Shown here: positions 1 to 32,611 of the stretch, piece after piece
Numbering within the stretch: the stretch's first letter is position 1
Layout: every line of letters begins with the position of its first letter
Source of the DNA: a virus
Reading direction: 5' to 3' (one strand)
Length of the DNA: 32,611 bases
Virus record (IMG/VR): IMGVR_UViG_3300048833_000781
Span: 1-32,611 of that record
The notes under the pieces: model-generated
The model's input: the letters and a program-made list of their open reading frames with translations, nothing else
Told to the model about the DNA's origin: nothing
Database searches by the model: none
Program-made: the position numbers and the translations under genes

Positions 1-684
1 TCAGATCGAGCGGCCGAACCAGACAACGCGGCCGGCGACCTGGAGCTTGTCGGCGGCTTCGGGGGTGACTTCTTCGGGTGGGTAGCGCTCGTTATCGCTC
101 GTGATCAGGATCGAGCCGTTGACGCGACGCTGGGCGCGTTTAACCACGACCTCTCCATCCAGAATCAAGACGTAGAGGGCTTCCGCCCTGATTCGCTTCA
201 CAGCGGTGTCAACGATCAGGTCGTCACCGGCTGATAGCGTCGGCTCCATGCTGTCTCCCGCGACGGTGACGATGTTCGCATGGGCCGGAGAAACGCCGAT
301 AGACCGCAGGAAAGCACGGGGGAACGGCACCATTTCAAGGGTTTTCTCCGAAGCACCTGATGCGCCCGGCCCCGCCGATGCCACCACGTCGAGGCGGGGG
401 ATATTGCTCACATCGTGCCGATCCGTCGCTTCGCCGTCGGAGAAAGCGTCGCCATGACCCGTAGCAAGCCACTCGATCGAGCAGCCGGCACGCGTTGCCA
501 AGCCGGTCACCACGCTCAAGGGCGGCTCGACCTCGCCCGACACATATCTGTCCAGCGTTCTGCCAGATTTGCCGGTTGATTCGACGGAAGCGTCGATACC
601 GATTCGCTTTATGACGGATCTAATTCTTTCGCCCAGCTCCGGAAGCGAACCGTAAACCGCCTTTACCCTTTCGGGATCGCCCAT
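1..684 (-). CDS. S24-family phage repressor (CI/LexA-like)
   Basis: Lysogeny repressor of 227 aa, transcribed leftward and divergent from the early genes. The N-terminal ~80 residues look like a helix-turn-helix DNA-binding domain. The C-terminal half is a LexA/CI-type S24 self-cleavage and dimerisation domain: Ala104-Gly105 within ASAGPG is the likely autocleavage site, Ser145 in GDSMEPT is the nucleophile and Lys182 in VVVKRAQ is the general base. The frame stays open to 831, but the ATG at 684 is preferred because a GGTGGA ribosome site lies just upstream and the extra residues would run through the operator region. Cleavable repressors of this type normally make induction responsive to RecA/SOS, unlike the ClpX-sensitive repressor of Mu itself. 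The stop codon is the first base triplet of the window, so the left end of the element is outside. Confidence 0.9.
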   Translation of the reverse strand: MGDPERVKAVYGSLPELGERIRSVIKRIGIDASVESTGKSGRTLDRYVSGEVEPPLSVVTGLATRAGCSIEWLATGHGDAFSDGEATDRHDVSNIPRLDVVASAGPGASGASEKTLEMVPFPRAFLRSIGVSPAHANIVTVAGDSMEPTLSAGDDLIVDTAVKRIRAEALYVLILDGEVVVKRAQRRVNGSILITSDNERYPPEEVTPEAADKLQVAGRVVWFGRSI

Positions 685-870
685 GTTTCCACCGTAAGTC
701 TTTGTATTTGTGGGGCAATGACAGATTTGCGCCACGCGTGACAGATTTCGCAAGAGTAAAGACAAATATGTCTTGATCTGAGACGTATCTGACGGCACAA
801 TTCGGGCCATTGCAGTGATTTGCAAATCCATCCGCCGAACCCTGCCAGGATCGCATCAGAAGGACCCATC
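685..870. promoter_or_regulatory. Divergent early operator/promoter region
   Basis: This 186-bp gap between the leftward repressor and the rightward Ner-like gene holds repeat structure expected of an operator. TGACAGATTT occurs twice at 719 and 739, exactly 20 bp apart, so both lie on the same helix face. A perfect dyad, AAGACAAATATGTCTT (6-bp arms, 4-bp centre), is at 759-774. A weak rightward sigma70-like pair is TTGATC at 773-778 and CACAAT at 796-801, with 17-bp spacing, so the dyad would overlap its -35. Binding of the repressor or Ner-like protein here is inferred from position only. Confidence 0.55.
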
Positions 871-3120: not shown

Positions 3121-3326
3121 GCTGCGGAGCCTTCGCCCAGATCGATGCATTCACCGTGGGCCTGCTGGTAGTCACTGTGTGGAATGCCGCCGCGATCAGC
3201 GTTTTTAGCTTTCTGATGATGGACATCAGGCGACCCGCTTCGGTGATGTCGCTGTTCTTCTCGGTCACATCCGCCGTCGTGCTGGTTGCCCTCAGCGCAC
3301 TCGTAACCATCGGGCTTTGCCAATGA
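3117..3326 (+). CDS. Small two-pass membrane protein
   Basis: Protein of 69 aa starting at GTG 3117, which overlaps the previous stop (GTGA), with GGAGG at 3105-3109. Two hydrophobic segments of about 20 residues each (about 9-32 and 42-67) are separated by a short MDIRRP loop, so it is very likely an inner-membrane hairpin protein. Function unknown. Small early membrane proteins in temperate phages are sometimes involved in superinfection exclusion, but nothing in the sequence proves that. Confidence 0.55.
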   Translation: MSCGAFAQIDAFTVGLLVVTVWNAAAISVFSFLMMDIRRPASVMSLFFSVTSAVVLVALSALVTIGLCQ

Positions 3327-3334
3327 CCCCGGCT

Positions 3335-3499
3335 CGCTCTCGCCGATGCGGCGCGAGAGCGCTGCGCGCCCACCCGATCTCCTCCCAGGGGGTGGGCGCG
3401 CTTCAGATTTCCAACCGTTTCTGGTGCCGCCAAGGTCTCGCGTCCGGCGCCCGAGCCCTGCAGGTCCGTCTCGTGCCCCAAACCGGGGCGGACCTGCAG
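3335..3499 (+). promoter_or_regulatory. Leader with three consecutive inverted repeats
   Basis: The 196-bp gap before the transposase holds three stem-loops in series: CGCTCTCG/CGAGAGCG at 3335-3361 (8-bp arms), a perfect 12-bp arm pair at 3364-3375 and 3390-3401 (14-nt loop), and a perfect 11-bp arm pair at 3458-3468 and 3489-3499 (20-nt loop). In the last, GCCCC at 3475-3479 and GGGGC at 3485-3489 can form a competing inner hairpin. The final stem ends 11 nt before the AGGAGA ribosome site. No U-run follows any of them, so simple intrinsic termination is not obvious; attenuation, RNA processing or protein binding are possible. Confidence 0.6.
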
Positions 3500-3522
3500 A
3501 TTTCGCACACAGGAGATATCAG

Positions 3523-5721
3523 TTGAAAGAGTGGCTCACAGCGCAGGAAATCGCGGACGAAAAGCTGCCGTTCTTGCCTACCACCAAGATGGGCATCAAC
3601 ATGCTTGCTGAGCGCGAGAACTGGAACGCCCACCCTTTCGCCCGCCAGCGCCAAGGTCGCGGCGGCGGAATGGAATACCGCTATATGATCCTGCCGGCGA
3701 CGGCACAGATGGCCTATGTCGCCAAGTATCAGCGCATCGGCGTCGAGGCAGATCAGCCACCAGAGGGCGCGCTTGGTGACGTGAACCTGAATGCCCGCGA
3801 GAAGCGCGAGCGGGACGCCAGGGTTGCCATTCTCAGGGCCTTTGAAGATTTCGCGACCGGCATGCGCGCTCGCAGCCGGACGCTGTCAGGCGCCTTTCAC
3901 CACTTCTCGATCAAGTACAACGGTCGGTCCCTGCAGGTGGAAGATTGGGTGCGGGAAGCCGTGCCATCGATCTCACCCCGCACGCTGGCTCGCTGGCGCT
4001 CAAAGGCGAAAAAGGGACTGTCCGAGCTCGCTTTCGATCGAGGGGCCGCTCGCGCCGGTACTGGGGTGCTCGACACGGCCAATGAAGGCAAGGTCCGGAC
4101 ATACATTCTGGGCCTTATCGCGAGTGCGCCACAGCTCTCGGCCGATGCGGTCCTCACGCAGGTACGCGGTGAGTTTGGTGACCATTTAACGGTGCTATCG
4201 AAAGGCGATTTAAAGGCCGTCAAAATGCCTTCGATCCGCACCTTCCAGATGTTCATCAACACACTGAAGGAAAAGCACAAGGTCGAGCTGCTGAAGCTCA
4301 CCAATCCGGACCAGTACCGCTCAACCATGTTGCCTTCGGGGCGCGGTATGTATGCCGATATCAAGCGGCCGAACCAACTCTGGCAGATTGATGCGTCACC
4401 GACTGATGCGCTCTGCACCGATGGCCGTCACTCGGTCTATGTCTGCGTCGATATCGCCAGCCGCCGGATGCTGACTTACATGTCGAAGACGCCGCGTGCT
4501 TCCGCTGTCGGCCTTCTTATCCGAAAGGCTATTCTCGCCTGGGGCGTTCCGAAGGTCATCAAGACGGACAACGGCTCCGACTTCGTGGCGCACGAGACCA
4601 AGACGCTGTTTGCCGCTCTCGGCATCGATCCCGATCCCTCAGACGCCTATAGCCCGGCGCAGAAGGGCCACGTCGAGCGCGCCATCAGGACTTGGCAGCA
4701 TGGCTTTGTGACGCTCCTGCCCGGCTACGTCGGGCACAATGTCGCCGAGCGAAAGGCGATCGAGGACCGCAAGAGCTTTGCCGAGCGGCTTGGTCAGGAC
4801 ACGGCGGAAGCCTTCAATGTCCAGTACACGGCAGCCGAGTTCCAGGAGCGCTCTGACCGCTGGTGCCTCGACAAGTACCAGCACACTGAGCACGGGGGCC
4901 TAGAGGGGCTTACTCCCTTCCGCTACGCGGCCTCGGCCGAGTACACCGTCTCCCGCGTCGATGAGCGCGCCCTTGATGTTCTGCTCATGCCGGTTGCCCG
5001 CAACAATGGGCGCTGCACGGTCACCAAGTTCGGCATCCGCATCAATCATCACCACTATCGTCCCGAGGGGCTGCTCACAGGCCAGAGCGTGTTTGTCCGA
5101 ATGGACCCGAACGATGCCGGCCGCGCACATGTCTTCTCGCTGGACCAAACCGAATATCTCTGCCTCGCGACCTGCCCCGAGCTTGCCGGCATCCATCCGC
5201 AGACCTTCGAGAAGGCGCGCAAGGAGCTGCATGCTCAGCAGGTCAAGGAGCGCATCGATCCGATCAAGGCCGAGATCAAGAAGATCACCAGCGGGCCGTC
5301 GCTGATCGACCGGGCACTGGAAGTCGCAGCCCGCGACATCCCGAACGTCATCGCCCTGCCAAAGCGCGAGGAAAAGCACTCCACGCCTCAGATCGCCGCC
5401 GCGCTGGACGCCATGGATGGTGCCGAGGGCAAGCGGACTGTGGCCGAGGATGCGGGCTTTGATGCGCGTGTCCAACAGGTCGTGCTTGAGGATCTGACAC
5501 CCAAGGCATCCGGCGAGAATGTCGCCGCCATCCGCACCGGCACCACGCCCAGCCAGCGCTTCCACCGGGCACGTGCACTTCGCGCCCGCATGGATGCCGG
5601 CATCGAGCTCCTTCCGGAGGAGGCTTTCTGGCTCGGTTCCTACGAGGGCTGTGTCGAATGGAAGGTGCAGAAGGCTCTGTTCGAAGATTTCGGCGACCAG
5701 GCGCCGGTACCGAGTCCCTGA
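3523..5721 (+). CDS. Mu-like DDE transposase (MuA homologue)
   Basis: Transposase of 732 aa that joins the phage ends to target DNA during integration and replicative transposition. Residues ~2-65 form the MuA-type winged-helix DNA-binding domain (WLTAQEIADEKLPFLPTT..). The catalytic RNase H-fold core holds Asp290 (WQIDASP), Asp349 (KTDNGSDF) and Glu385 (GHVERAIR); the last pair is separated by 35 residues, the classical D35E spacing. A C-terminal Mu-transposase beta-barrel follows at about 500-570, then a helical tail that would contact the MuB-like ATPase. The reading frame is open upstream to 3346, but the TTG at 3523 with AGGAGA at 3511-3516 is the convincing start, and upstream sequence is consumed by stem-loops. 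It is slightly longer than Mu MuA (663 aa). Confidence 0.95.
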   Translation: MKEWLTAQEIADEKLPFLPTTKMGINMLAERENWNAHPFARQRQGRGGGMEYRYMILPATAQMAYVAKYQRIGVEADQPPEGALGDVNLNAREKRERDARVAILRAFEDFATGMRARSRTLSGAFHHFSIKYNGRSLQVEDWVREAVPSISPRTLARWRSKAKKGLSELAFDRGAARAGTGVLDTANEGKVRTYILGLIASAPQLSADAVLTQVRGEFGDHLTVLSKGDLKAVKMPSIRTFQMFINTLKEKHKVELLKLTNPDQYRSTMLPSGRGMYADIKRPNQLWQIDASPTDALCTDGRHSVYVCVDIASRRMLTYMSKTPRASAVGLLIRKAILAWGVPKVIKTDNGSDFVAHETKTLFAALGIDPDPSDAYSPAQKGHVERAIRTWQHGFVTLLPGYVGHNVAERKAIEDRKSFAERLGQDTAEAFNVQYTAAEFQERSDRWCLDKYQHTEHGGLEGLTPFRYAASAEYTVSRVDERALDVLLMPVARNNGRCTVTKFGIRINHHHYRPEGLLTGQSVFVRMDPNDAGRAHVFSLDQTEYLCLATCPELAGIHPQTFEKARKELHAQQVKERIDPIKAEIKKITSGPSLIDRALEVAARDIPNVIALPKREEKHSTPQIAAALDAMDGAEGKRTVAEDAGFDARVQQVVLEDLTPKASGENVAAIRTGTTPSQRFHRARALRARMDAGIELLPEEAFWLGSYEGCVEWKVQKALFEDFGDQAPVPSP

Positions 5722-5730
5722 AAAAGAAGC

Positions 5731-5757
5731 GGCCCGCCGGCTGCCACCGGACGGGCC
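5731..5757 (+). other. Hairpin between transposase and MuB-like gene
   Basis: GGCCCG-CCGG pairs with CCGG-A-CGGGCC around a six-base loop, giving a 10-bp stem with one bulged base. It lies ten bases after the transposase stop and ends 37 bases before the MuB-like start. There is no following T-run, so it may be a processing or partial attenuation signal that sets different transposase and ATPase levels. Confidence 0.45.
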
Positions 5758-5794
5758 ATCACCACTCATGACGAATGCTTGAAGGAAATATCGC

Positions 5795-6550
5795 ATGAAC
5801 CAGAATGTCAATCCCAACACCGCCGGGCCCGGCTTCGGCACGGTCGCCGCCTTGAAGAACGTTGGTGCCGCCTTTGGTGTCGCGCAGCGCATCATTGATC
5901 GGCCAGCCGGCGTGGATGGCCTGGGGCTCTTCTACGGCCCGTCGGGCTACGGCAAGTCGAAGGCCTCGACCTATGTGCAGAACAAGACCGGGGCGGTCTA
6001 TCTGGAGGTCTTCGATTACTGGACCCGCAAGACCTTCTGCGAAGCCCTGCTTTCGGAGCTTGGTATCGACAAGCCGAAGGGCACGATCGCGGGCATGATG
6101 CAGCAAGCGCTGCGCCTTCTCCAGGACGATCCGAACCGGCTGATGATCATCGACGAGGCTGACAAGCTGGTCGACAAGGGCATGATCGAGCTGGTGCGCG
6201 ATATCTACAAGGGTGCGCGTATCCCGGTGCTACTGGTTGGCGAAGAGATGTTGCCGCAGAAGCTCGCCCGCTATGAGCGCTGCGAGAACCGCGTGACCGC
6301 CTACGGGATGGCGAACCCGAGCGATCTCGACGACGCCCGTCGCCTTGCTGCCCTCTATCATCCGCGCCTGAGCTTCGGCGACGATCTTCTCGCGGAGGTT
6401 CTCTCCAAGACAAAGGGCAACGCTTCGCGCATCGTTACCTCGCTTGCCGAGATCGCACAGTTTGCTCGCGCCAACAGCATGACGAGCCTCGCTCGCGCCG
6501 ATTACGACGGGCCGTTCTTCACCGGACAGGCGCCGCGGAGGGGCAAGTGA
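5795..6550 (+). CDS. MuB-like AAA+ ATPase, transposition target protein
   Basis: ATPase of 251 aa. Walker A is GPSGYGKS at 48-55 and Walker B is LMIIDEAD at 116-123; a sensor/arginine region (ARYERCENRV) follows near 165-175. Mu MuB coats target DNA, delivers it to the transposase and protects the phage genome from self-integration. The position directly after the transposase is the Mu arrangement. It is shorter than Mu MuB (312 aa) and appears to lack the N-terminal HTH appendage, as in many AAA family proteins of alphaproteobacterial Mu-like phages. The ATG follows AAGGAAATAT. The stop overlaps the next start. Confidence 0.92.
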   Translation: MNQNVNPNTAGPGFGTVAALKNVGAAFGVAQRIIDRPAGVDGLGLFYGPSGYGKSKASTYVQNKTGAVYLEVFDYWTRKTFCEALLSELGIDKPKGTIAGMMQQALRLLQDDPNRLMIIDEADKLVDKGMIELVRDIYKGARIPVLLVGEEMLPQKLARYERCENRVTAYGMANPSDLDDARRLAALYHPRLSFGDDLLAEVLSKTKGNASRIVTSLAEIAQFARANSMTSLARADYDGPFFTGQAPRRGK

Positions 6551-15795: not shown

Positions 15796-17446
15796 GATCC
15801 CTAGGGGCGAATGGCGCGACCCGCCGGTTCTGCCGAGCGACCCAGCCGCGCTCCCGGTTGAGCTGCCGCGTGGCGGCGATATTCCTGATGACCTCGACGC
15901 CCTGGCAGACGGCATTCTGATGACGCATCAGGCGGAATGGATTGCCGATGAGAGCACATTGAAGCTCTGCGCAAAGGGTCGCCGTACCGGGATCACGTTT
16001 GCCGAGGCTCTGGATAACACGCTGATTGCCGCCGCTCGGCGCTCCGCCGGCGGCCAGAATGTTTTCTACATTCCAGACAGCAAGCCGAAGGGTCGGGAGT
16101 ATATCGGCTATTGCGCCCACTTCGCCAAAACGCTTGCCGGCGTCAACGAGCTGGTGGCGATCGAGGATGGCGTTTTCTTTGACCAGAAGGCAGACGGCAG
16201 CACGCAGGCCATCTCTAGCTATATCATCCGCTTCAAATCCGGCTTCCGGATCGAGGCGCTTTCGTCCAGGCCAGAAAATATTCGCGGTCTGCAGGGCACC
16301 GTCGTGATCGACGAAGCAGCCTTCCACCGTGATGTGCGCGACGTGATTGATGCGGTCGGCGCGCTTCTCATCTGGGGCGGCAAGATCAGGATCATCTCCT
16401 CGCATAACGGCGTCAGCAACCCGTTCAACGAACTGATCCGCGAAGCCCAGGCCGGCAAGAATGGCTTCAAGGTCCATACCTACAGCTTCGGCGATGCAGT
16501 CGCCAACGGGCTCTACAGGCGCGTTTGCCTGATCAAGGGCGAAGAGTGGTCGAAAGAAAAGGAAGCGGCCTGGGAGGCGGAGATCCGCTCGGCCTACGGT
16601 ACCCGCACCGCGAAAATGCGCCAGGAGCTGGATGCGATTCCGGCTGAATCGGAAGGTGCCGCCCTCACGCGTGTCCTGATCGAAAGCTGCATGCAGCCGA
16701 ACATACCTGTCATCCGCTGGGCTTGCTCCGACGACTTCAAGATGCTTCCAGATGAGGAGCGCTCAAACCAGACAAAGGCATGGCTTGAGCGCGAGGTGGG
16801 TCCCCATCTCACCAATCTGAATTCGCGCCGGCCGCATGTGTTCGGTGAGGACTTTGGGCGCATCGGCGACACCACGGCGATCGTGCCGATGGAGGTTGGT
16901 ACGGACCTGGTGCGTCGGGTGCCGTTCATTGTCGAGCTGCACAATGTGCCCTTCGACCAGCAGCGGGAAATCCTGTTTTATGTGGTCGATGGCCTTCCCA
17001 ATCTGACTGGCGGTGCGCTCGATGCCGGCGGCAATGGCGCCTATCTCGCAGAAAAGGCCGCGCAGCGTTACGGCTCGACCATCGTCGAGGTGAAGTTTTC
17101 CGCCTCCTGGTACCAGCTGGAAATGGCAGCCTATGTCATGGCCTTCTCCGACAAGACCGTCGTCTTGCCCCAGAATGCGGATGTGCTCGCCGATCACCAG
17201 GCGCTCGCTTACGTCAACGGTTACATCAAGGTGCCGGACGATCACCGCACCAAGGGATCGGATGGTTACGACCGGCATGGCGATACAGCGATTGCCGGTG
17301 CGCTCGCTTACTTCGCCAGCCGATCGGACCTGGAGGCGTTCGGCTACACCCCGATCAGTCAGCTCGAGTCCTTGACGGGTGTGCGCATGTTCGAAGAACC
17401 GGTGAGCGGTGGCCTGATCCCCAACCTTAGAGGAGGCCTTTTCTGA
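15788..17446 (+). CDS. Large terminase (Mu gp28-like)
   Basis: Packaging motor of 552 aa. The ATPase part has a Walker A-like CAKGRRTGIT (61-70) and Walker B VVIDEAAF (172-179, Asp175-Glu176). The C-terminal RuvC/RNase H-like nuclease starts at FGEDFGRIGDTTAI, with Asp355 as a probable metal ligand, and a further acidic residue is expected near DGYDRHGDT. The ATG at 15788 is chosen because it has the usual position and the residues encoded upstream in this frame belong to the preceding gene. The order gp27-gp28-gp29-gp30 is preserved. Packaging in Mu-type phages captures flanking host DNA. Confidence 0.93.
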   Translation: MVEIPRGEWRDPPVLPSDPAALPVELPRGGDIPDDLDALADGILMTHQAEWIADESTLKLCAKGRRTGITFAEALDNTLIAAARRSAGGQNVFYIPDSKPKGREYIGYCAHFAKTLAGVNELVAIEDGVFFDQKADGSTQAISSYIIRFKSGFRIEALSSRPENIRGLQGTVVIDEAAFHRDVRDVIDAVGALLIWGGKIRIISSHNGVSNPFNELIREAQAGKNGFKVHTYSFGDAVANGLYRRVCLIKGEEWSKEKEAAWEAEIRSAYGTRTAKMRQELDAIPAESEGAALTRVLIESCMQPNIPVIRWACSDDFKMLPDEERSNQTKAWLEREVGPHLTNLNSRRPHVFGEDFGRIGDTTAIVPMEVGTDLVRRVPFIVELHNVPFDQQREILFYVVDGLPNLTGGALDAGGNGAYLAEKAAQRYGSTIVEVKFSASWYQLEMAAYVMAFSDKTVVLPQNADVLADHQALAYVNGYIKVPDDHRTKGSDGYDRHGDTAIAGALAYFASRSDLEAFGYTPISQLESLTGVRMFEEPVSGGLIPNLRGGLF

Positions 17447-19131
17447 TGGCCAGGACGCCACAAATCATCGACCAGTGGGGAAACCCGGTCTCGACCGCAG
17501 CCCTCAAGCAGGAGTTTGCCGCGCCAACCCTGGGCGGCTTGCGCACCGTCTGGCAAGAGACCATCGTCAACAACCTGACGCCGCTTGCCATGGCCGACGT
17601 GCTGAATGCCGCCGGCCGCGGCTATCCCGATCGCTTCTTCACGCTTGCCTCGGAAATGGAAGAGCGCGATCTGCATTATGCGGCGGTGCTCGGCACCCGC
17701 AAGCGGGCGATCACCGGCGTGAAGCCTATGATCATTCCGGCGTCGGAAGACGCCGAGGACGAGAAGATTGCCGATGCGGTGCGTGAGCTGATCGATCAGC
17801 CGGAGTTTGTGGACGACTATATCAGCGACCTGCTGGACGCGCTCGGCAAGGGCTACTCCGTCGTCGAGACCGTGTGGGACCGGTCGGGTAAGGAGTGGTT
17901 CCCGAAGAGATACGAATGGCGCGACCAGCGGCATTTCGTGATTGACCAGACGGATGGCCGCACGCTGCGCTTCAAGCAGGAGGGCAACATCCATGGCGTT
18001 GACCTTCCGCCTTTCCAGTTTTCTGTCCATCGTCCGAAGCTGAAGTCGGGCTTGCCGATCCGCGCCGGCCTTGCTCGCCTCTCTGCCTGGGCCTTCCTCT
18101 TCAAGTCCTACACACTGAAGGACTGGATGGCGTTCCTCGAAATCTACGGCATGCCGCTCAGGATCGGGCGCTATAGCAAAGGCGCAAGCCTTGATGATCG
18201 CCGCGTCCTTTTGACTGCCCTCCGCCAGATCTCGTCTGACGCAGCTGCGATGATTCCGAAGGAGATGGATGTCGAGTTCATCGAAGCGAAGGGCGGTACC
18301 GGCAACGCTGTCTTTTCGGCCAAGGCGGAATATCTCGATCGCCAGATCTCGAAGGGTGTGCTTGGTCAGACCATGACGACGGACGACGGGTCCTCGCTCG
18401 GTCAGGCTGCCGTTCATGAAAACGTCCGACACGACATTGCGCGAGCCGATGCGCGGCAGACAACGATCACGGCCAACCGTGATCTGATCCGGCCCTATGT
18501 GGATCTCAATTTCGGGCCGCGCGACCGCTACCCGACCATGGTCATCCCGATCACCGAAAACGAAGACATCAAGGCCCTGGTCGAGGCTGTCGAGCGTCTC
18601 GTGCCACTCGGCCTGAAGGTCGGCATGGCCGATGTGCGCGAGCGCATCGGCTTCGAGGAGCCGGATGAGGATGCCGAGCTTATGGCGCCGGCAGCGCCGC
18701 GCCCTGAAGCGGGTCGGCCGATCGAGGTGGTGACGAACAAGCGCAAGCCAGGCGCGGGGCAGCCAGAGGGAAAGGCGGCAGGGGAAGATGACGAAGACGG
18801 CAAGAACAATCTTCAGCCAGATCCTCCGGTCACGTCGGCCGCCCGACTTCAGATCCGCTGCCCGGGCTGCGGCGGCTTCCATGCGCTGGCAAGTGATCAG
18901 ACACCAGAGCTCGACATACTGGCCGAGGAAGCCCTGACCGACTGGGAGGAAGATCTCGACCCAATCGTAAAGCCACTTCAAAGGCTGTTCGACACCGCGA
19001 AATCCTATGCCGACCTTGAGGCGGGCCTTGATGACCTCATCGCTCGCATGGATGCCGGGCCGATCGCTGACCGGCTTGCCAAGGTCATGATGAAGGCGCG
19101 CGGGCTTGGCGATCTTGGCGAGGGCAAATAG
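17446..19131 (+). CDS. Portal protein (DUF935, Mu gp29)
   Basis: Portal of 561 aa of the DUF935 family. Family segments include PTLGGLRTVWQETIVNNLTP, the EMEERDLHYAAVLGTRKRAI region, and FEIYGMPLRIGRYSKG (sequence FLEIYGMPLRIGRY). It forms the dodecameric DNA gateway of the head and docks the terminase. The C-terminal ~140 residues carry a CPGC knuckle (Cys472, Cys475) followed by GGFHAL, an addition not present in all portals. AGGAGG at 17431-17436 precedes ATG 17446, which overlaps the terminase stop. Confidence 0.93.
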   Translation: MARTPQIIDQWGNPVSTAALKQEFAAPTLGGLRTVWQETIVNNLTPLAMADVLNAAGRGYPDRFFTLASEMEERDLHYAAVLGTRKRAITGVKPMIIPASEDAEDEKIADAVRELIDQPEFVDDYISDLLDALGKGYSVVETVWDRSGKEWFPKRYEWRDQRHFVIDQTDGRTLRFKQEGNIHGVDLPPFQFSVHRPKLKSGLPIRAGLARLSAWAFLFKSYTLKDWMAFLEIYGMPLRIGRYSKGASLDDRRVLLTALRQISSDAAAMIPKEMDVEFIEAKGGTGNAVFSAKAEYLDRQISKGVLGQTMTTDDGSSLGQAAVHENVRHDIARADARQTTITANRDLIRPYVDLNFGPRDRYPTMVIPITENEDIKALVEAVERLVPLGLKVGMADVRERIGFEEPDEDAELMAPAAPRPEAGRPIEVVTNKRKPGAGQPEGKAAGEDDEDGKNNLQPDPPVTSAARLQIRCPGCGGFHALASDQTPELDILAEEALTDWEEDLDPIVKPLQRLFDTAKSYADLEAGLDDLIARMDAGPIADRLAKVMMKARGLGDLGEGK

Positions 19132-24659: not shown

Positions 24660-25180
24660 GCGGGCGGATCGAGGCCTTCAGGACGGCTGTGGCTGCCCGC
24701 ATCAATGTCATCGCGCCGGAGCTTCGCAGCGTCGAGGCGCAGTTCGGTCGCTTCGACCTGGACGAGCTGGAGCGCACGTCGATGCGGTGCCCGGCTGTGC
24801 GGCTCTCCATCCTGCGCGCCCCTCTGGTCTCGGCGCTGGATGGCAAGCTGGAGGCGCAGCTCTATTGCGTTGCCTTTGTCATAACGGACGGCAAGGACAA
24901 GGATCGGTTCGGCTGGAATATTGCCGAGGCCATCGCGACCCAGCTGCATTCGGGCCAGCTTTGGGGCCTGACCAGGCTCGCGGCTCCGACAGACAGAGAG
25001 ATCCAGCCCGTCGTCACCGGCAAGCTCCGCGATCGTGGCGTTTCGATCATTGCGGTGGAATGGCGCCAAACGCTCCGGCAGCTCGGCGAGAACATCTTCG
25101 ACGACAACGGCGTGATGTTTGATGGCGCGTATCTGAACGGGGAGGAAGTCGAGCTCGACCAGGGAGGCGCGAATGAATGA
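24656..25180 (+). CDS. DUF1834 (Mu gp37-like) protein
   Basis: Protein of 174 aa similar to DUF1834/gp37: an N-terminal helix (RIEAFRTAVAARINVIAP), then beta strands with CPAVRLSILRAP and EAQLYCVAFVITD, and a GWNIAEAIATQL helix followed by a W-rich strand. The fold is that of tail-terminator-like proteins. In Mu, tail sheath and tube genes follow soon after; here a P2-type baseplate gene follows at once. It overlaps gpG by 4 bp and gpV by 8 bp. Confidence 0.82.
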   Translation: MSGRIEAFRTAVAARINVIAPELRSVEAQFGRFDLDELERTSMRCPAVRLSILRAPLVSALDGKLEAQLYCVAFVITDGKDKDRFGWNIAEAIATQLHSGQLWGLTRLAAPTDREIQPVVTGKLRDRGVSIIAVEWRQTLRQLGENIFDDNGVMFDGAYLNGEEVELDQGGANE

Positions 25181-25706
25181 CCGTGACGCACGGGCTATTG
25201 CTCGCGAGTTCCGTCGCTCAGACAAGCGCTTCGATGATCTTGAGCGCCGCATGGCCTCCATGATCCTCAGCGGCAAGATCGCCGCAGTTGATGGTGATCG
25301 CGTCAGGGTCGAGCTTGAGCCCGCCAACGCCAAGACCGGAAAGCCGTTTCTGTCGCCCTGGGTGCAGATGCAGGAAGCATCCGGCCAGACTGGCACGCAC
25401 TTCCCGGTCAAGGAGGGCGACCCAGTGCGGCTGCTGTCGCCCAATGGAGAGCTTGGCCCAGCCTCACTTGCCGTGCGCGACGGCTACACAGACGGAGCGT
25501 CGAACCCCACCGACAAGAAGCAGACCGAGCTGGTCATCGCGAACGACGGCCCTGTTCGCTTCAAGGGATCGTCCATCATTTTCGAGGCGGAAGGTGCTGT
25601 CGATGTGAACTCGGCGAGCCTCAAGCACAACGATGTGAATGTCGGCGATAGCCACATCCACCCTGAAAGCATCGGCATCCTGACCGGCCCACCCGTATCG
25701 TCCTGA
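25173..25706 (+). CDS. Baseplate spike protein (P2 gpV-like)
   Basis: Protein of 177 aa. A short N-terminal helix (about 1-30) leads into an OB-like domain (about 33-105: SGKIAAVDGDRVRVELEP... SPWVQMQEASG... FPVKEGDPVRLLSPNG), then a beta-helix-like C-terminal part ending in GDSHIHPESIGILTGPPV. His161/His163 resemble the metal-binding HxH at the tip of P2 gpV spikes. It would trimerise and pierce the outer membrane. It starts the V-W-J-I baseplate set typical of P2. Confidence 0.9.
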   Translation: MNDRDARAIAREFRRSDKRFDDLERRMASMILSGKIAAVDGDRVRVELEPANAKTGKPFLSPWVQMQEASGQTGTHFPVKEGDPVRLLSPNGELGPASLAVRDGYTDGASNPTDKKQTELVIANDGPVRFKGSSIIFEAEGAVDVNSASLKHNDVNVGDSHIHPESIGILTGPPVSS

Positions 25707-25717
25707 AGGAGACCATC

Positions 25718-26020
25718 GTGAAAGCGAACGAGCAGAGCATAGAGACAGAAATTCAGGGCAAGCAGCTTATCGCTCCGCGCGTGACGCCGGTCATGCTCGA
25801 TGACGAGATCGTCGCGGAAGACTATCACGTCTTCCCCGGCACATGCCTGACCGTCTGCTGCCTGACCCTCAGGAACGGCTTTACGGTCACCGGCGAAAGC
25901 GCCTGCGCCTCTCCCGAAAACTTCGACGCCGAGCTCGGCCGCAAGATCGCGCGCGGCAATGCCTGGGAAAAGCTCTGGCCTCTGCTGGGCTTCCGGCTGC
26001 GCGATCAGCTGGCCCGTTAA
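25718..26020 (+). CDS. Gp49-like (N4 gp49/Sf6 gp66 family) protein
   Basis: Protein of 100 aa. The central and C-terminal segments (LTVCCLTLRNGFTVTGESAC, then FDAELGRKIARGNAWEKLWP ending in LGFRLRDQL) match the N4 Gp49/Sf6 gene 66 family. This family is widespread in phages with no firm role. It starts at GTG 25718 with AAGGAGA upstream, in the middle of the baseplate genes. Confidence 0.82.
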   Translation: MKANEQSIETEIQGKQLIAPRVTPVMLDDEIVAEDYHVFPGTCLTVCCLTLRNGFTVTGESACASPENFDAELGRKIARGNAWEKLWPLLGFRLRDQLAR

Positions 26021-26044
26021 TCACACCTCAAAGGAGCTTTAAAC

Positions 26045-26302
26045 GTGGAAAAACAGATCTTCGAAGTCACCGAAAAAGCCGGCGCATTTGTCGCCGGCAA
26101 GCGGTCGCCCGGCGCAGGCAAGACCATGTCGCTCACCGCAGAGCAGGCTTATTTCGCGCTGCAGGCTGATGAGCTCCGCATGCCCGCCGCCCAGGCTGCC
26201 ACTGAAGCGCCGGCGGCTGATCCGGCGGTGGCGGTAGAACCGACATCGGAAGCTGTCGACGCTCCGGCCGAAGCCAAGTCGCGCTCCTCGCGAAAGGGCT
26301 AA
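26045..26302 (+). CDS. Hypothetical small tail-region protein
   Basis: Protein of 85 aa starting at GTG 26045 with AGGAG upstream. The first 45 residues contain FVAGKRSPGAGKTMSLTAEQ and a helix ending LQADELR, resembling the small modules of gp35-type proteins. The rest is an Ala/Pro/Glu-rich tail ending in RSSRKG. Function unknown. It lies between the Gp49-like and gpW-like genes. Confidence 0.6.
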   Translation: MEKQIFEVTEKAGAFVAGKRSPGAGKTMSLTAEQAYFALQADELRMPAAQAATEAPAADPAVAVEPTSEAVDAPAEAKSRSSRKG

Positions 26303-26305
26303 AAC

Positions 26306-26686
26306 ATGCGGGTCGGGATCAACGAGTGGACAGGACAGAGGCTGACTGGCTGGGCGCACTGCCAGCAGTCTATCCGCCGCTGCCTGCGCACGCGCTTCCG
26401 GACCCGCGAAATGCGCCAGTATCTGGGCTCCAGGGTGCCTGAGCTGCAAGACGATAATGCGTCTGCAGACACTATTTTCGATTTCTTCGTCGCCATCGCC
26501 GAAGCGCTTGCCGATCCTGATGGTGGCGAGCCCGGATTCAGGCTTGTCGAGATTGAAATTGTCGCAAGCGGTGCGCGCTCGGGTCGGTTTGCCTTCCTGT
26601 TGAGCGGCATCTTCTTCCCGCGAGGTCACCTGGGCGACTTCTCGATCTCCGAACTGCAATCAGTCACTTTTCCCGAGGGGGCTTGA
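26306..26686 (+). CDS. Baseplate protein gpW (gp25 family)
   Basis: Protein of 126 aa matching GPW/gp25: MRVGINEWTGQRLTGWAHCQ, then SIRRCLRTRFRTREMRQYLG, SRVPELQDDNA, a helix, DPDGGEPGFRLVEIEIVASG and a FFPRGHLGDFS ending. gp25-type proteins have lysozyme-unrelated wedge roles: they link baseplate and sheath and start sheath polymerisation. Its presence implies a contractile tail although no sheath gene is in the window. Confidence 0.92.
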   Translation: MRVGINEWTGQRLTGWAHCQQSIRRCLRTRFRTREMRQYLGSRVPELQDDNASADTIFDFFVAIAEALADPDGGEPGFRLVEIEIVASGARSGRFAFLLSGIFFPRGHLGDFSISELQSVTFPEGA

Positions 26687-26687
26687 G

Positions 26688-27629
26688 TTGATTTACGCGC
26701 CAACCGCCATCGACCTGTCCCGCCTTGACGCTCCCCAGGCGATCGAGACCATCAGCGCCGAAGCTCTTTATGCTGATTACCGGGCCCGCTTTGTCGCGGC
26801 ATGGGACTCCTTGCGGATCCGCTATCCCGATCTGCCTGTCCATGACACCGTCCTCCTGGAGACGGAGCCGGCGGCCGTCGTCGGCCAGGTATTCAGCTCA
26901 AGCCGTCGCAACGATCGCCAGCGGGTGAATGACGGCCTGCGTGCGCTTCTGGCTCCGCTTGCCTCGCAGTCGGATCTCGCTGTTCTCGTGGCCAGCCGGA
27001 ACATTGAGCGCCTCACGGTTGTCCCGGCGAGCTCGACAGCAGACGCGATCATGGAGAGCGATGCCTCGCTTCTGCGCCGATTCCTTCTGTCGTTCGATGA
27101 GCCGTGCGCCGGTTCTGCCGGCCGCTACCTCTTCGATGCCTGGTCGGCCTGGCCGCAAAACGAAGACAGGACGCTCGGCCTTTGGGATGCCCGCGTGAAC
27201 GGATGGGCCATCCACGGCCGGCGCGGAGACAGCGACCTCGTGCTTGTGGGGCCGTATGGGCGTGTCCCGACGACGGAAGAGCTTACCGCCGTTCGGGCAT
27301 CCGTTGCCCACCCCAATCGCGCGCCAGAGGCCGTCGCAATATCGGTGCTGGCCGCAACGCGCGTTGAGTACGCAGTGCGGCTTCACCTTGAGGTGCCGGG
27401 AAGCGGCCCGTCTCCCGCTGTCGTAAAGGCAGAGGCGGAAGCCAGGGTAAGCAGGGCGGCGACCGACAGGATCTTGATCGGCGGCGAGATCCCGGCCGGG
27501 CTTCTGCCTGGCGTTGCCTATGGCGACGGCATCATCAAGGTGACTGACCTCGCTCCCGTAATCATCGCCCCAGATCCCTACAAGGTGCCCGTCATGACTG
27601 ACCTGACCGTCACGGTCGAGGTGCGCTGA
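26688..27629 (+). CDS. Baseplate wedge protein gpJ (P2-like)
   Basis: Protein of 313 aa similar to P2 gpJ/T4 gp6: early YADYRARFVAAWDSLRIRYP, then helical VFSSSRRNDRQRVNDGLRAL, DLAVLVASRNIERLTV, a FLLSFDEPCAGSAGRYLFDA region, and C-terminal beta segments ending PVMTDLTVTVEVR. Baseplate wedge component. It uses a TTG start at 26688, one base after the previous TGA, and the upstream CGAGGGGG may serve as ribosome site. Its stop overlaps gpI. Confidence 0.9.
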   Translation: MIYAPTAIDLSRLDAPQAIETISAEALYADYRARFVAAWDSLRIRYPDLPVHDTVLLETEPAAVVGQVFSSSRRNDRQRVNDGLRALLAPLASQSDLAVLVASRNIERLTVVPASSTADAIMESDASLLRRFLLSFDEPCAGSAGRYLFDAWSAWPQNEDRTLGLWDARVNGWAIHGRRGDSDLVLVGPYGRVPTTEELTAVRASVAHPNRAPEAVAISVLAATRVEYAVRLHLEVPGSGPSPAVVKAEAEARVSRAATDRILIGGEIPAGLLPGVAYGDGIIKVTDLAPVIIAPDPYKVPVMTDLTVTVEVR

Positions 27630-28294
27630 TGGCTGATGTTGCGCTTCTCCTGTCTGCCGAGGCAAAGGCGTTTGAGCGAGCGGTCGCCGCCGGCATGTCC
27701 GATGAGCTTCCTGTTCCCTATGACGAGATCATGGACCCCTACCGGACACCGGAGCGGTTCCTGCCGTGGCTTGCTGCGCACCATTCCGTCGATCTTTGGT
27801 TTGATGATTGGCCGACAGCCCGCAAGCGCGAGATGATTGCGCAATGCGCCGGCGTCTCTACGGTCTATCCGGCGTCGCCGCTCGGAAGCCTGAAGGGCAC
27901 GCTTGCCGGCCTCAAGCGCTATCTGGAATTCGTGGATGCCGAGATAATTCATCGGATTGCGCACCCGTCGCGCTTCATTTTTGGTGAAGCGGTTCTTGGC
28001 CAGACGCCGATCAACCATGTGCCGTTTCTGGCGCGCTACCTGATCAAGGTGAGCCTGGTTGCGCCGAACGGCTATTTCCAGATCGGGCGCAGCGCCTTTT
28101 CCAGGCGCTACCTTCGCTCCGTCGATCTGGAGCCACTGCGGCGCGCCAAGCGGGCGGCGCAAACGGCGAAGACGCCGGAGACCCAATACACGATCAGCTT
28201 CGCCTGGCGGCGCAGCATCACCTTTCAGGACAACATCCCGATCGACGGCAGCCATGTGTTTGATGGCTGGCTCGACGCATCCCGCCTAGGCTGA
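27629..28294 (+). CDS. Baseplate/tail protein gpI (P2-like)
   Basis: Protein of 221 aa of the phage tail protein I family: ALLLSAEAKAFERAVAAGMS, YDEIMDPYRTPERFLPWLAA, HHSVDLWFDDWPTARKREMI, and the TVYPASPLGSLKGTLAGLKR segment. It forms part of the wedge that attaches tail fibres. The order V-(two small genes)-W-J-I is that of P2. It is followed 11 bp later by the fibre-like gene. Confidence 0.92.
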   Translation: MADVALLLSAEAKAFERAVAAGMSDELPVPYDEIMDPYRTPERFLPWLAAHHSVDLWFDDWPTARKREMIAQCAGVSTVYPASPLGSLKGTLAGLKRYLEFVDAEIIHRIAHPSRFIFGEAVLGQTPINHVPFLARYLIKVSLVAPNGYFQIGRSAFSRRYLRSVDLEPLRRAKRAAQTAKTPETQYTISFAWRRSITFQDNIPIDGSHVFDGWLDASRLG

Positions 28295-28305: not shown

Positions 28306-30570
28306 ATGAAGCGTATCGATTTTTCAAATGCAGAGGTCGCGGACCACTCCGACTTTGCCAATATCGGGCTCTTTGCCCAGCAGAGCATTGACGGTATCTG
28401 GCTCGATGCCATCGGCTATCCAGCCCACTGGGCAGGCTTTACTGTCAGCCAGAAGTCGGCGCAGGAAGTCACGGTGTCGGCGGGTCGCTATGTTGCAGGC
28501 GAGCTGGTCTATGACCAGGCGGCCGCGACCGATGTCAACCTTCAGCTCCAGATCCCGCCGGCGGCGTCCGATCAGCGCTGGGTTGCTATCCTGCTTCGCG
28601 GCGAAGAGGTCACGGTTTCGGAAAGCCGACCCTTCAACACGTCGGAAGATCCGGAAGTTGAGACCATCGTCCAGATCTCGACGCCAAAGACCATCCGCCG
28701 CATCGTGTCCCTGATCTTGCAGGCGGGCGACGCCAACCCGGTTCCGGTGAAGCCTGTCGTCGCGCCGACTGATGCCTGCATTGCCTATGTGCTGGTGACC
28801 TCGTCGGGTATCGACTTTATCGAGCCCGGCAACGATAGCCGCGTAAAGACCCTTTACGAGGTCGAGGGCCGCGTCTCGGCGCTGGAGATCAATCTCGATG
28901 GGCTCTTTCTGCGCACGGAATCGATCGAGACCCAGATTACCAATATTCAGGGGCGGCTGACCGAGATCCCGCGCCCGCAGATTATCCGCCAGATGCAGCG
29001 CGATATCGGTGCAGCCCGCCTGAAGGGTGAGCTTCCGGATGAGGCCCGCGCCTATGTCTTTGACCAAGGCCTGATTCCCGATCAGTGGGACTTGACCCAT
29101 GTCGACTGGCTGGCCCGGATCGAGGAAGGCGTGCGCTTCGGCTATGCGGCCACCACCCAGGCGCGGCTTGAGGTGCAGGCCGAGGATAATCCCGCAATTG
29201 CGTTTCGTGGACGGCGCATGGTTCCGGCTTTTGACGAGGTCGTGAAGATCGCCAATACGGCAATTGACGGCAGCTTGAACATCAGCCAGCTCGTGCACAC
29301 CGTGACGACGGCCGTGCGCCGCGAGGTCTCGCGCATCCGCATCACCTATGGCCCGACACAGTGGGCTTGCGAGAACCAGGCGGGATGGTCTGCCCTTGGT
29401 GGCGATGCCCGTGTGGGCCAGATGTTCAACATCGGCGGCGAGGTGTTTCAGGTTGTCGAGATCCGCGCCAACCACGGTCGCGGCCACCAGACCTACGGCG
29501 TCCGGCAGGTTCGCCAGGAGCAGTATACCGAGGCCTATTGGGAATACGTGACCGAGCATATCGGCATCAACGGTTCGGTCTATGGCCAGACCTTCCTTGT
29601 GGCCCAACCGATGCAGATGACCTCGATCGACCTGCACTTCGCCCGCGTCGGCGTCGATGGCGACGTGCATGTCTTCATCGTCGAGACCACCAACGCCGGC
29701 ACGCCAAAGTTCGATGCGGTCCTCGCGCAAGCCACTGTCGCCCGTGCTGCTCTCACTGCTGGCTGGAACAAGTTCGTGTTGCCGATTACTCTTCTCGAGA
29801 GTGGAAAGCGCTATGCCTTCGTGACCGTGACGACAGGCGCACACGCGCTCTCGACCTCAGGCTCCAACAAGTACACCGGTGGCTCGCAGTTCCTGACGAC
29901 GGACGGCGCCTTTGCGCAAGGCTCGACCGAGATCGACATCTGCTTCCGGATCAACGGTGCCCGCTATCGCTCTCCGCGCACCGTCGTTCCAATGCAGGCG
30001 CTAAACCTGGTCGATGGCATGACGGTCATCGACATGATCTACCCGGGCTGGGTTCCAGGCGGCTGCCAGCTTGCCTGGGAGATCCGGCCGGCAGGCACGG
30101 ACATCTGGACCGAGATCGACGATGGCGACCCGGCAGAAAACCCGCTGGTCGGTCTGCCGGCGTCCGTAGAGCTGCGCATGGTGATGCTCGGGACGGCGGA
30201 TCTTCAGCCGATGATCCAGCTCGACCCGACAGCCGTCTCCCGCGTGTCGCGCAATCGCAGCACCATGGTCGGCGTCTCCCAGGATTTCGACTTCGGGCTT
30301 TCGACGACATCGATCGTTACCCAGTACACGCTCGACGCCTTCGACGAGACGCGTCACACCTTTACCCCGCGCATCATGGTCGGCGGGGTAGTCGTCGCGC
30401 CGGCAACGACCGAGATCACCATCGACCCTGCCAACCCGAACCGTCGCACTTACCTCTCGACCTATGCGCTGGGGGCGGCAACGACTTCTGCGCGCATGCG
30501 AGTTGAGGCGACGACGACCAACATCGTGTCCGTGCCGTTCGTGCAGGATGCCTTCATCTCCGCTCTGTAG
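28306..30570 (+). CDS. Large fibre-like tail protein
   Basis: Protein of 754 aa in the position of P2 gpH. The N-terminal ~190 residues are beta-rich (VTVSAGRYVAGELVYDQ...) and probably attach to the baseplate. A coiled-coil segment at about 185-235 follows (RVSALEINLDGLFLRTESIE...). The middle and C-terminal parts are long beta domains with carbohydrate-binding-like or Ig-like character (VHVFIVETTNAGTPKFDAVL, AGWNKFVLPITLLESGKRYA). I do not recognise a named family. It may form the shaft that carries the diversified adhesin encoded two genes downstream. GAGGAGC precedes the ATG. Confidence 0.7.
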   Translation: MKRIDFSNAEVADHSDFANIGLFAQQSIDGIWLDAIGYPAHWAGFTVSQKSAQEVTVSAGRYVAGELVYDQAAATDVNLQLQIPPAASDQRWVAILLRGEEVTVSESRPFNTSEDPEVETIVQISTPKTIRRIVSLILQAGDANPVPVKPVVAPTDACIAYVLVTSSGIDFIEPGNDSRVKTLYEVEGRVSALEINLDGLFLRTESIETQITNIQGRLTEIPRPQIIRQMQRDIGAARLKGELPDEARAYVFDQGLIPDQWDLTHVDWLARIEEGVRFGYAATTQARLEVQAEDNPAIAFRGRRMVPAFDEVVKIANTAIDGSLNISQLVHTVTTAVRREVSRIRITYGPTQWACENQAGWSALGGDARVGQMFNIGGEVFQVVEIRANHGRGHQTYGVRQVRQEQYTEAYWEYVTEHIGINGSVYGQTFLVAQPMQMTSIDLHFARVGVDGDVHVFIVETTNAGTPKFDAVLAQATVARAALTAGWNKFVLPITLLESGKRYAFVTVTTGAHALSTSGSNKYTGGSQFLTTDGAFAQGSTEIDICFRINGARYRSPRTVVPMQALNLVDGMTVIDMIYPGWVPGGCQLAWEIRPAGTDIWTEIDDGDPAENPLVGLPASVELRMVMLGTADLQPMIQLDPTAVSRVSRNRSTMVGVSQDFDFGLSTTSIVTQYTLDAFDETRHTFTPRIMVGGVVVAPATTEITIDPANPNRRTYLSTYALGAATTSARMRVEATTTNIVSVPFVQDAFISAL

Positions 30571-30578
30571 AGGTCATC

Positions 30579-30761
30579 ATGACAACCAAACCTATGACTA
30601 TCGATGAGGCTGCGACCTATGTCGTGAAGCTTTCCCGCGTCGTTCAGATGGGGGCGTTCAAATACAAGCCTCTGAACGAAATGGAGATGGCGGGCGCCAT
30701 GCTCAAGCGGATCGTGGACGAGCACGGCGAGGAGGCGATCGACTATGCCCGACAGCTCTGA
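30579..30761 (+). CDS. Small helical protein before the DGR target
   Basis: Protein of 60 aa, mostly helical (ATYVVKLSRVVQMGAFKYKP...GAMLKRIVDEHGEEAIDYARQL), overlapping the adhesin gene by 17 bp. Closely packed between fibre and adhesin, it could be a chaperone for fibre assembly or a small regulator. No recognised family. AGAGGT near 30569-30574 precedes the ATG. Confidence 0.55.
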   Translation: MTTKPMTIDEAATYVVKLSRVVQMGAFKYKPLNEMEMAGAMLKRIVDEHGEEAIDYARQL

Positions 30762-32202
30762 CGATTATCAGCTCCCGTCCTGGCCTCCGACGCCGATCAA
30801 CCGCGATCTCTGGAATGCGGTCATGGGCTCGATCGCCGCCCGACTGACGGCGCGCGAGGATCTCGAAGCCACCTTTGAGGCCCTTCAGCAGACGGGCATC
30901 CAGGCGTCGCTTGATTACATTCAGGTGACCGTCGCACCACAGATCGCGACGCTCCAGACCTCGATCACACTCGCCCAGGAGCAGCTTGACCAGATCATCC
31001 TGGATGGCGTCTCGCCCGACTCCAACAAGCTAGGCGGGCAGCTCCCGGCCTACTACGCAACGGCGAATGCCCTTTCGACCGGTTTGACCGACGCTGCGAA
31101 CGCCTTGTCGCAGCTGAGCACAGATACGGCCGACGCCCTTGCGGACAAGGCCGACGCCGACGATGTCGCCACCGCCCTTGCGGACAAGGCCGACGCCGAC
31201 GATGTCGCCACCGCCCTTGCAGAGACTGCCGCAGCAATCAGCCTCCGCGCAAAAGGCCTGTTCGAAAAGGCCGATCCGCGCTCCGTCGCCTTCACCAAGA
31301 CTGGCGCCGGCACGGCTTCGATCAAGGCCGGCACCATCGTCGAGGTGAATGGCGCGGTCCATCAGTTTGCGGTCGATACCGCAATTACCATGCCGGCGCT
31401 GACCGCAGGCACGGATTATGCAATCTGGATCCACCCAGACGGTGCGATCTCGGCGACGGCAAGCTTCACGTCGGCGCCCGTTGCCAATGCGCGTCGCATT
31501 GGCGGCTTCCACTACGCGCCAGGCGGCAATGCTGCGGCCCAGGCTGGCGGTGACGCTGTGCCGGCGATCAACGAATTCTCGATGTGGGATCTGAAGTGGC
31601 GGCCGTCCTGCCCGGACCCGCGCGGCATGACGTTGGTGGCCGGTGCTTTCTGGTGTGACATCTATCATCTCGGCGTCGATCACCTGATCAACGGAACGTC
31701 GAAGTTCAACGTGACCATGGCAGACGGCTCTTCGCCGCCGCGCCGTCCGCTGATGTTCGGTGGCAATGGAACCGCGACCTATTCGACGCTCACCTGGTGG
31801 GAAGCTGCCGAGGTCATGGTGAGCCACGGCAAGGAGCTGCTCTCCTATGCCGACTTCGCTGCCGCAGCTTACGGCACCACGGAAAACGCGTCTGCCGGTA
31901 CCGATCCGGTCTCGACCATACTTCGCCAGGCCTACACCTCGAAATGGGGCGTGATGCTGGCGACCGGCAATGTCTGGGTCTGGGGCAATGAGTTTGGCGG
32001 TGGCGCTCAGGGTGCTGCCTGGGCGAACAACAACGGCGGTCGCGGGCAGGTCTACCAGCAAGAGAACGCGCTCCTCCTCGGCGGGTCCTGGGGCGTCGCT
32101 GCGTTCTCTGGCTCGCGCGCGTCGAGCTGGGGCGACGCGCCGTCGATCTCCGAGTCCCGCTTCGGGGCGCGGGGCCGCTGTGAGCATCTGACCCTTGTCT
32201 GA
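30745..32202 (+). CDS. Mtd-like receptor-binding protein, DGR target
   Basis: Tail adhesin of 485 aa. Residues 1-130 are helical and beta-mixed. Two perfect 13-residue repeats (ALADKADADDVAT) lie at 131-156, followed by a beta-rich segment (about 175-265) and a C-type-lectin domain from about 275 (WRPSCPDPRGMTLVAGAFWC). The end, GG-x-W-xxxxx-SGSRA-x-x-W-xx-APS-x-S-x-S-xx-GARGRCEHL, aligns without gaps to the C-terminus of BPP-1 Mtd as I recall it. Predicted variable residues are Ser448, Gly450-Phe454, Ser461, Gly463, Asp464, Ile468, Glu470, Arg472 and Phe473. These would form the ligand-binding surface. It is longer than Mtd (381 aa) because of the N-terminal region. GAGGAG precedes the ATG. 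Confidence 0.93.
   Translation: MPDSSDDYQLPSWPPTPINRDLWNAVMGSIAARLTAREDLEATFEALQQTGIQASLDYIQVTVAPQIATLQTSITLAQEQLDQIILDGVSPDSNKLGGQLPAYYATANALSTGLTDAANALSQLSTDTADALADKADADDVATALADKADADDVATALAETAAAISLRAKGLFEKADPRSVAFTKTGAGTASIKAGTIVEVNGAVHQFAVDTAITMPALTAGTDYAIWIHPDGAISATASFTSAPVANARRIGGFHYAPGGNAAAQAGGDAVPAINEFSMWDLKWRPSCPDPRGMTLVAGAFWCDIYHLGVDHLINGTSKFNVTMADGSSPPRRPLMFGGNGTATYSTLTWWEAAEVMVSHGKELLSYADFAAAAYGTTENASAGTDPVSTILRQAYTSKWGVMLATGNVWVWGNEFGGGAQGAAWANNNGGRGQVYQQENALLLGGSWGVAAFSGSRASSWGDAPSISESRFGARGRCEHLTLV
31135..31220 (+). repeat. 39-bp tandem repeat in adhesin stalk
   Basis: Two perfect 39-bp copies (31135-31173 and 31174-31212) followed by eight bases of a third. They keep frame and encode ALADKADADDVAT twice. 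The unit would allow gain or loss by slippage, altering the length of the acidic stalk before the lectin head without breaking the gene. Confidence 0.95.
32075..32199 (+). other. DGR variable region (VR) with homing end
   Basis: The 3' end of the adhesin gene in the place of the BPP-1 VR. Ten of 13 predicted variable codons read NNC: TCC 32086, GGC 32092, GTC 32095, TTC 32104, AGC 32125, GGC 32131, GAC 32134, ATC 32146, CGC 32158 and TTC 32161. The exceptions are GCT, GCG and GAG. Intervening codons (SGSRA, GARG) are conserved. A 15-nt G/C-only run at 32164-32178 corresponds to the (G/C)14 part of the initiation-of-mutagenic-homing site in BPP-1. The left boundary is approximate, since the template repeat is not in the window. 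Confidence 0.85.
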
Positions 32203-32611
32203 CCGCCCTGAAAAGGGCGGGCCTGCCCGGGGCCAGCCACAGCAAATCCTGACAGATCCAACCAGCAGCTACGACCAGCTGCGCATCATTGAAAGGTACG
32301 AACAATTTATAGATTACCTTTACCCCATCCTGCAGAGCTGCCCGCGCAAGCACGGCATTGCGAGGGATGCGGTATTGGCTGCGATGTTCGCGCAGGTCGA
32401 TCTCTTCATAATTGCTGGAAAGTCGAGACAGGCTTCCAGACTGTATTCCGCAGACGCCAATCTTTCGGCCCTGCGGTTCTGGCTGCGCTTTCTGGCGGCA
32501 CCATCGCGCAAGATCATCACGCCCAACCAGCACCGGGTGGCATCGATCCACCTGGCCGAGGTCGGCAAGATGATCGGCGCATGGCTGAAGTCAGCAAAGA
32601 GCGGGGGTTGA
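32195..32611 (+). CDS. avd: DGR accessory protein Avd
   Basis: Protein of 138 aa in the annotated frame. From residue 25 on it matches BPP-1 Avd closely: YDQLRIIERYEQFIDYLYPI, CPRKHGIARD, QVDLFIIAGKS, SADANLSALRFWLRFLA and HLAEVGKMIGAWLKS. Avd is a four-helix-bundle protein that forms a pentameric barrel, binds the reverse transcriptase and template RNA, and is needed for mutagenic homing. There is no ATG or GTG upstream of the conserved part in this frame; TTG at 32195 overlaps the adhesin end by 8 bp and is the best start, without a clear ribosome site. The first ~24 residues cover the hairpin and are low-complexity. The stop codon is the end of the window. Confidence 0.93.
   Translation: MSDRPEKGGPARGQPQQILTDPTSSYDQLRIIERYEQFIDYLYPILQSCPRKHGIARDAVLAAMFAQVDLFIIAGKSRQASRLYSADANLSALRFWLRFLAAPSRKIITPNQHRVASIHLAEVGKMIGAWLKSAKSGG
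32203..32220 (+). other. DGR target-site hairpin with GAAA tetraloop
   Basis: CCGCCCT and AGGGCGG form a perfect 7-bp stem closed by GAAA, starting at the first base after the adhesin stop codon. In BPP-1 and related DGRs, a hairpin or cruciform with a four-base loop just downstream of VR enhances homing. It lies within the 5' part of the Avd reading frame. Confidence 0.85.

What the first reader, a model, noticed from the sequence alone, without database searches (positions are those of the whole stretch)
30745..32611. BPP-1-type diversity-generating retroelement in a Mu-like alphaproteobacterial prophage
The window ends with three DGR components in order: an adhesin with an Mtd-like variable C-terminus, the homing-site hairpin, and a close Avd homologue. 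The Avd match spans almost the whole helical bundle (RIIERYEQFIDYLYP, PRKHGIARD, FIIAGKS, LRFWLRFLA). BPP-1 is a podovirus of Bordetella; here the same module is attached to a transposable phage with Mu-type replication and a P2-type baseplate. This would let a phage that copies itself by transposition also diversify host recognition.
Basis: partly seen in the sequence, partly recalled or inferred. Interest (0 to 1): 0.92.

Follow-up and report, generated by a model that had tools for sequence, protein, structure and literature searches.

The report
Mu-like phage with Bordetella-type tail diversifier
This fragment of a Mu-like phage ends in the first half of a known gene cassette that rewrites the tip of the phage's tail fibre so it can bind new bacteria; the combination is already known in other Mu-like phages, so this is a well-supported new example and not a new kind of system.

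Summary
Adhesin residues 169-484 match the BPP-1 tropism determinant Mtd (E about 1e-110), its last ~117 bp are a variable repeat (VR), a 7-bp GC-rich hairpin with a GAAA loop follows at 32203-32220, and the last gene is an Avd homologue (E 1e-38). The template repeat (TR) and reverse transcriptase (RT) are NOT in the window: the record ends on the Avd stop codon. That they follow is a strong inference: all 12 related records with Avd beside an Mtd-type adhesin also have an RT, and in the 11 whose TR I aligned, TR/VR differences lie almost only at template adenines. The window VR differs from the closest TR at 17 of 22 adenines but only 8 of 95 other bases. The phage is Mu-type (MuA, MuB, Mu portal, P2/Mu baseplate). 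The 34 relatives sharing its fibre N-terminus lack the Mtd domain, Avd and an RT, so the fibre is a fusion that captured a mobile Mtd/DGR cassette. Mu-like phages with DGRs are already published (Hankyphage, Desulfovibrio piger prophages, Mushu). This is a new member of a known kind, apparently in a new, probably alphaproteobacterial, Mu-like group.

The parts
30745..32202 (+). Chimeric tail adhesin (485 aa): N-terminal ~114 aa shared with P2/Mu-type tail-module relatives, linker aa ~117-164, Mtd-type C-terminal domain aa 165-485
31134..31220 (+). Perfect 39-bp tandem repeat (2.2 copies, in frame, 13-aa units) in the linker between the tail-module part and the Mtd part
32067..32183 (+). Variable repeat (VR); aligns without gaps with the 117-bp template repeats of L001/L002, and its changed residues fall on template Asn (AAY) codons
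32203..32220 (+). Homing-site hairpin: 7-bp GC-rich stem with GAAA loop (GRNA consensus), 19 bp after the end of VR
   Evidence: published rule in PMC3240598
32195..32611 (+). Avd accessory protein homologue (138 aa from TTG; the true start may lie further in, where L001/L002 have an ATG)
3346..5721 (+). MuA-like transposase (rve, Mu-transpos_C, HTH_Tnp_Mu_1)
5795..6550 (+). MuB-like DNA transposition protein (phrog_296)
17446..19131 (+). Mu-type portal protein
25173..28294 (+). P2/Mu-type baseplate genes (assembly protein 25173-25706, gpW-like wedge 26306-26686, gpJ 26688-27629, gpI 27629-28294)
28306..30570 (+). 754-aa tail protein of unknown function (phrog_17470), marker of the tail module shared with AmM-1 and other phages
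1..831 (-). S24-type CI-like repressor

Best explanation
The window is a right-truncated piece of a temperate Mu-like phage with a P2/Mu-type baseplate whose receptor-binding fibre is a fusion: the N-terminal, baseplate-side part of its own tail module joined in frame to the Mtd domain of a BPP-1-type diversity-generating retroelement (DGR). The order is Mtd with VR, hairpin, Avd, then (beyond the record) TR and RT. RT with Avd would copy a TR transcript and misread its adenines; the cDNA would replace VR next to the hairpin, changing about ten surface residues of the fibre tip and so the receptor bound. Shown: adhesin, VR, hairpin, Avd, Mu-type genes here, and adenine-specific TR/VR differences in relatives. 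Inferred: presence of TR and RT here, activity, and a role in host range.
For: Mtd and Avd identity. RT in 11 of 16 related records; wherever Avd occurs beside the adhesin, an RT follows at BPP-1-like spacing. TR/VR differences are at template A only in L001, L002, L005, L006, L007, L016, L017 and one VR of L018, with a single exception each in L004, L010, the other VR of L018, and L078. Window VR against L001 TR: 17 of 22 A differ, 8 of 95 others differ, Fisher p=1.6e-10; against a more distant TR, L078, p=4.5e-9. Variable residues coincide with those of BPP-1 Mtd. In L001/L002 the TR begins 22 bp after the Avd stop, just past the point where the window ends. Mu genes. Fusion: the N-terminal part matches 34 tail-module relatives, none with Mtd or Avd or an RT.
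Against: TR and RT are not in the record and no overlapping record was found. A chimeric assembly joining two phages inside the adhesin is not excluded, although the frame is open through a linker found in neither relative. Some Mtd-type adhesins (Haematospirillum) have no adjacent Avd or RT, so an adhesin alone does not prove a DGR.
Confidence: 0.9

Rival explanations
1. Remnant or decayed DGR: the phage once had the cassette but TR or RT has been lost, leaving a fixed Mtd fibre and an orphan Avd.
For: Haematospirillum genomes and related phage records carry Mtd-type adhesins with no Avd or RT nearby.
Against: Avd is intact and 87% identical to the Avd of complete cassettes; no relative with Avd beside an Mtd adhesin lacked an RT; the window VR departs from templates at adenines, the mark of past homing.
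Confidence: 0.06
2. Assembly chimera: a Mu-like phage contig wrongly joined to the DGR cassette of another phage such as G003, whose Mtd region is 97% identical in protein.
For: None of the tail-module relatives carries the Mtd domain, none of the other DGR relatives shows Mu-type genes (several are fragments), and a perfect 39-bp tandem repeat lies near the junction.
Against: The fusion is in frame; the linker (aa ~117-164) matches neither parent and its repeat occurs in no other viral contig; DNA identity to G003 is 92.8%, not 100%, and starts only after the linker; the same kind of tail-fibre/mtd fusion is described in a Vibrio kappa prophage (PMC3521204).
Confidence: 0.04

Closest known systems
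Bordetella phage BPP-1 DGR (Mtd, VR, Avd/bbp7, TR, Brt)
   Same: Mtd domain 57% identical over aa 170-484, Avd 51% identical, same VR position and variable residues, hairpin with GRNA loop, same gene order as far as the window reaches and in complete relatives
   Different: BPP-1 is a podovirus without Mu-type transposition (own knowledge); its fibre N-terminus is unrelated to this tail module
Hankyphage of Bacteroides (PMC6199706, PMC12135933)
   Same: Mu-like transposable phage with a DGR, 117-bp repeats differing at adenines, Avd, active diversification of the tail fibre
   Different: Different host phylum; not among the phage records matched by this Mtd or Avd
Mu-like prophages of Desulfovibrio piger (PMC12724379) and Faecalibacterium phage Mushu (PMC5883640)
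   Same: Mu-like phages with RT, Avd-like protein and a variable target
   Different: Other hosts; [quoted passage not shown]
Vibrio cholerae HE-09 kappa prophage fusion (PMC3521204)
   Same: BPP-1-type cassette fused into the tail fibre gene of a different temperate phage
   Different: Kappa is a P2-like, not a transposable, phage (own knowledge)
IMG/VR records 2693430069_000001 and 3300025018_000292 (L001, L002)
   Same: 78% DNA identity over 31279-32611, with complete TR and RT
   Different: Different fibre N-terminus; no Mu transposase or Mu portal found

Membership tests
BPP-1-type diversity-generating retroelement | Target gene with C-terminal VR in a C-type-lectin (Mtd) domain | tested here: met
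BPP-1-type diversity-generating retroelement | Avd accessory protein | tested here: met
BPP-1-type diversity-generating retroelement | GC-rich 7-10 bp hairpin with GRNA loop 4-34 bp after VR | tested here: met
BPP-1-type diversity-generating retroelement | Template repeat differing from VR at adenines | tested here: inconclusive
   absent from the truncated record; met in close relatives, and the window VR differs from their TRs mainly at adenines
BPP-1-type diversity-generating retroelement | DGR reverse transcriptase with YxDD | tested here: inconclusive
   none in the truncated record; present with YMDD in relatives
Transposable (Mu-like) phage | MuA-type transposase and MuB-type ATPase | tested here: met
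Transposable (Mu-like) phage | Mu-type head genes (portal, minor head protein, protease) | tested here: met
Transposable (Mu-like) phage | Random integration with short (5-bp) target duplication | not testable with these tools
   no host flanks in the record

The most novel reading that the evidence does not exclude
A complete, active BPP-1-type DGR, captured by in-frame fibre fusion, in an alphaproteobacterial Mu-like lineage that otherwise lacks DGRs, so that each transposition-made genome copy in one cell could receive its own fibre variant.
Probability: 0.4. Interest if true: 0.45.

Novelty: new member of a known kind. Interest (0 to 1): 0.33.

Why it matters
It extends DGR-bearing transposable phages beyond the published Bacteroides, Faecalibacterium and Desulfovibrio cases. 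It also gives a clean natural example of a whole fibre-tip-plus-diversifier cassette moving between unrelated phages by fusion at the fibre linker: a 97%-identical Mtd domain sits on a different fibre in another phage (G003).

Tried and rejected
A template repeat elsewhere in the window: no second copy on either strand. An overlapping viral record reaching beyond 32611: none. A bacterial genome carrying the same phage: only three Haematospirillum loci with related adhesins and no Avd. Close Avd in 385 alphaproteobacterial genomes: only three weak matches. First idea that this phage lacks a tail sheath and tape measure: rejected, because in Aurantimonas phage AmM-1 the sheath, tube and tape-measure genes lie downstream of the fibre, and the sister Mu-like phage L043 has further genes after its fibre, so they are expected beyond the window's end. 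Assembly chimera: judged unlikely, see rivals.

Full report
What the window is. It is a complete IMG/VR virus record of 32,611 bp. Both ends fall on gene ends: a CI-like repressor on the minus strand at 1-831 and the Avd stop codon at 32611. It looks like a provirus call or contig cut at gene boundaries (inference), so nothing beyond Avd can be read.

The phage. A MuA-like transposase, MuB-like protein, Mu portal, minor head protein, protease and major head protein and P2/Mu-type baseplate genes make it a Mu-like phage with a contractile-type baseplate. The closest transposases in the phage collection are in Rhodobacter phage RC1 and Rhodovulum phage RS1, 36% identical, and the 754-aa tail protein is 68% identical to that of Aurantimonas phage AmM-1. 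This supports an alphaproteobacterial host without proving it. In AmM-1 the sheath, tube and tape-measure genes follow the fibre, so the missing right part of this phage probably holds them too.

The DGR parts. Adhesin residues 169-484 match solved BPP-1 Mtd at E about 1e-110. Avd matches solved BPP-1 Avd at 1e-38. The hairpin after VR has a 7-bp GC-rich stem and GAAA loop, inside the published rule of 7-10 bp and a GRNA loop (PMC3240598). L001, L016 and L017 keep it with 8-bp stems, GRNA loops (GACA, GGTA, GAAA) and paired stem changes.

The missing parts, from relatives. Of 16 related viral records, 11 have an RT over the Pfam cut-off. In L001, L002, L004, L005, L006, L007, L010, L016, L017, L018 and L078 the order is Mtd/VR, Avd, TR, RT. 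L001/L002 and L005/L006/L007 are close to each other, so these are about eight independent cassettes. A divergent cassette in G003 has the same Mtd, Avd, RT order. TR and VR differ only at template adenines in seven of these records, with one exception each in L004, L010, one of the two L018 VRs and L078. The window's VR compared with the L001 TR differs at 17 of 22 adenines and 8 of 95 other positions, p=1.6e-10. In protein, its changed residues fall on template Asn codons, the ones that vary in BPP-1 Mtd. In L001/L002 the TR starts 22 bp after the Avd stop.

How the cassette got here. The tail-module relatives compared (L012, L013, AmM-1, and 31 further loci) share the adhesin's first ~114 residues, but none has the Mtd domain or Avd, and no RT was found in 35 of the records, in L012 or L013, or in the annotation of AmM-1. 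Seven of the 35 are Mu-type by transposase. The sister Mu-like phage G403 (transposase 61% identical) has an unrelated fibre tip. Conversely, the Mtd/DGR relatives sit on other fibre N-termini, and none shows the Mu transposase or portal domain (several are fragments). G003 has a 97%-identical Mtd domain on yet another N-terminus. The best reading is in-frame capture of a mobile Mtd/DGR cassette by a Mu-like phage's fibre gene, as described for the V. cholerae HE-09 kappa prophage (PMC3521204).

Novelty. Mu-like phages with DGRs are published: Hankyphage, with observed tail-fibre diversification (PMC6199706, PMC12135933), D. piger prophages (PMC12724379) and Mushu (PMC5883640). [quoted passage not shown] What is new here is the phage group and the particular fusion. 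I rate it a new member of a known kind.

Noticed in passing
L030 (G003) 3114-6636, minus strand, and L031 17298-18617: Record G003 carries a complete DGR with two tandem Mtd-like targets near one end and a third, separate Mtd adhesin (97% identical to the window's) cut off just before its VR at the other end: possibly two DGRs in one phage.
   Followed up: partly
L018 4720-6874: Two tandem target genes, each with its own VR, apparently served by one template repeat.
   Followed up: no
L032, L033, L034 (Haematospirillum): Mtd-type adhesins 45-56% identical to the window's, with no Avd found in the two genomes searched and no RT beside the related phage records: apparently target genes without a retroelement.
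   Followed up: partly
phage records LR745707 and LR745708 (hits H18, H15): Records labelled Escherichia phage T7 have a tail fibre gene 17 with an Mtd-like tip (about 54% identical); probably engineered hybrids.
   Followed up: no
window 31134-31220: Perfect 39-bp tandem repeat (2.2 copies, in frame) in the fibre linker; its core was found in no other viral contig.
   Followed up: partly
window 1200-2042: ParB-like partition protein next to the repressor in a Mu-like phage.
   Followed up: no
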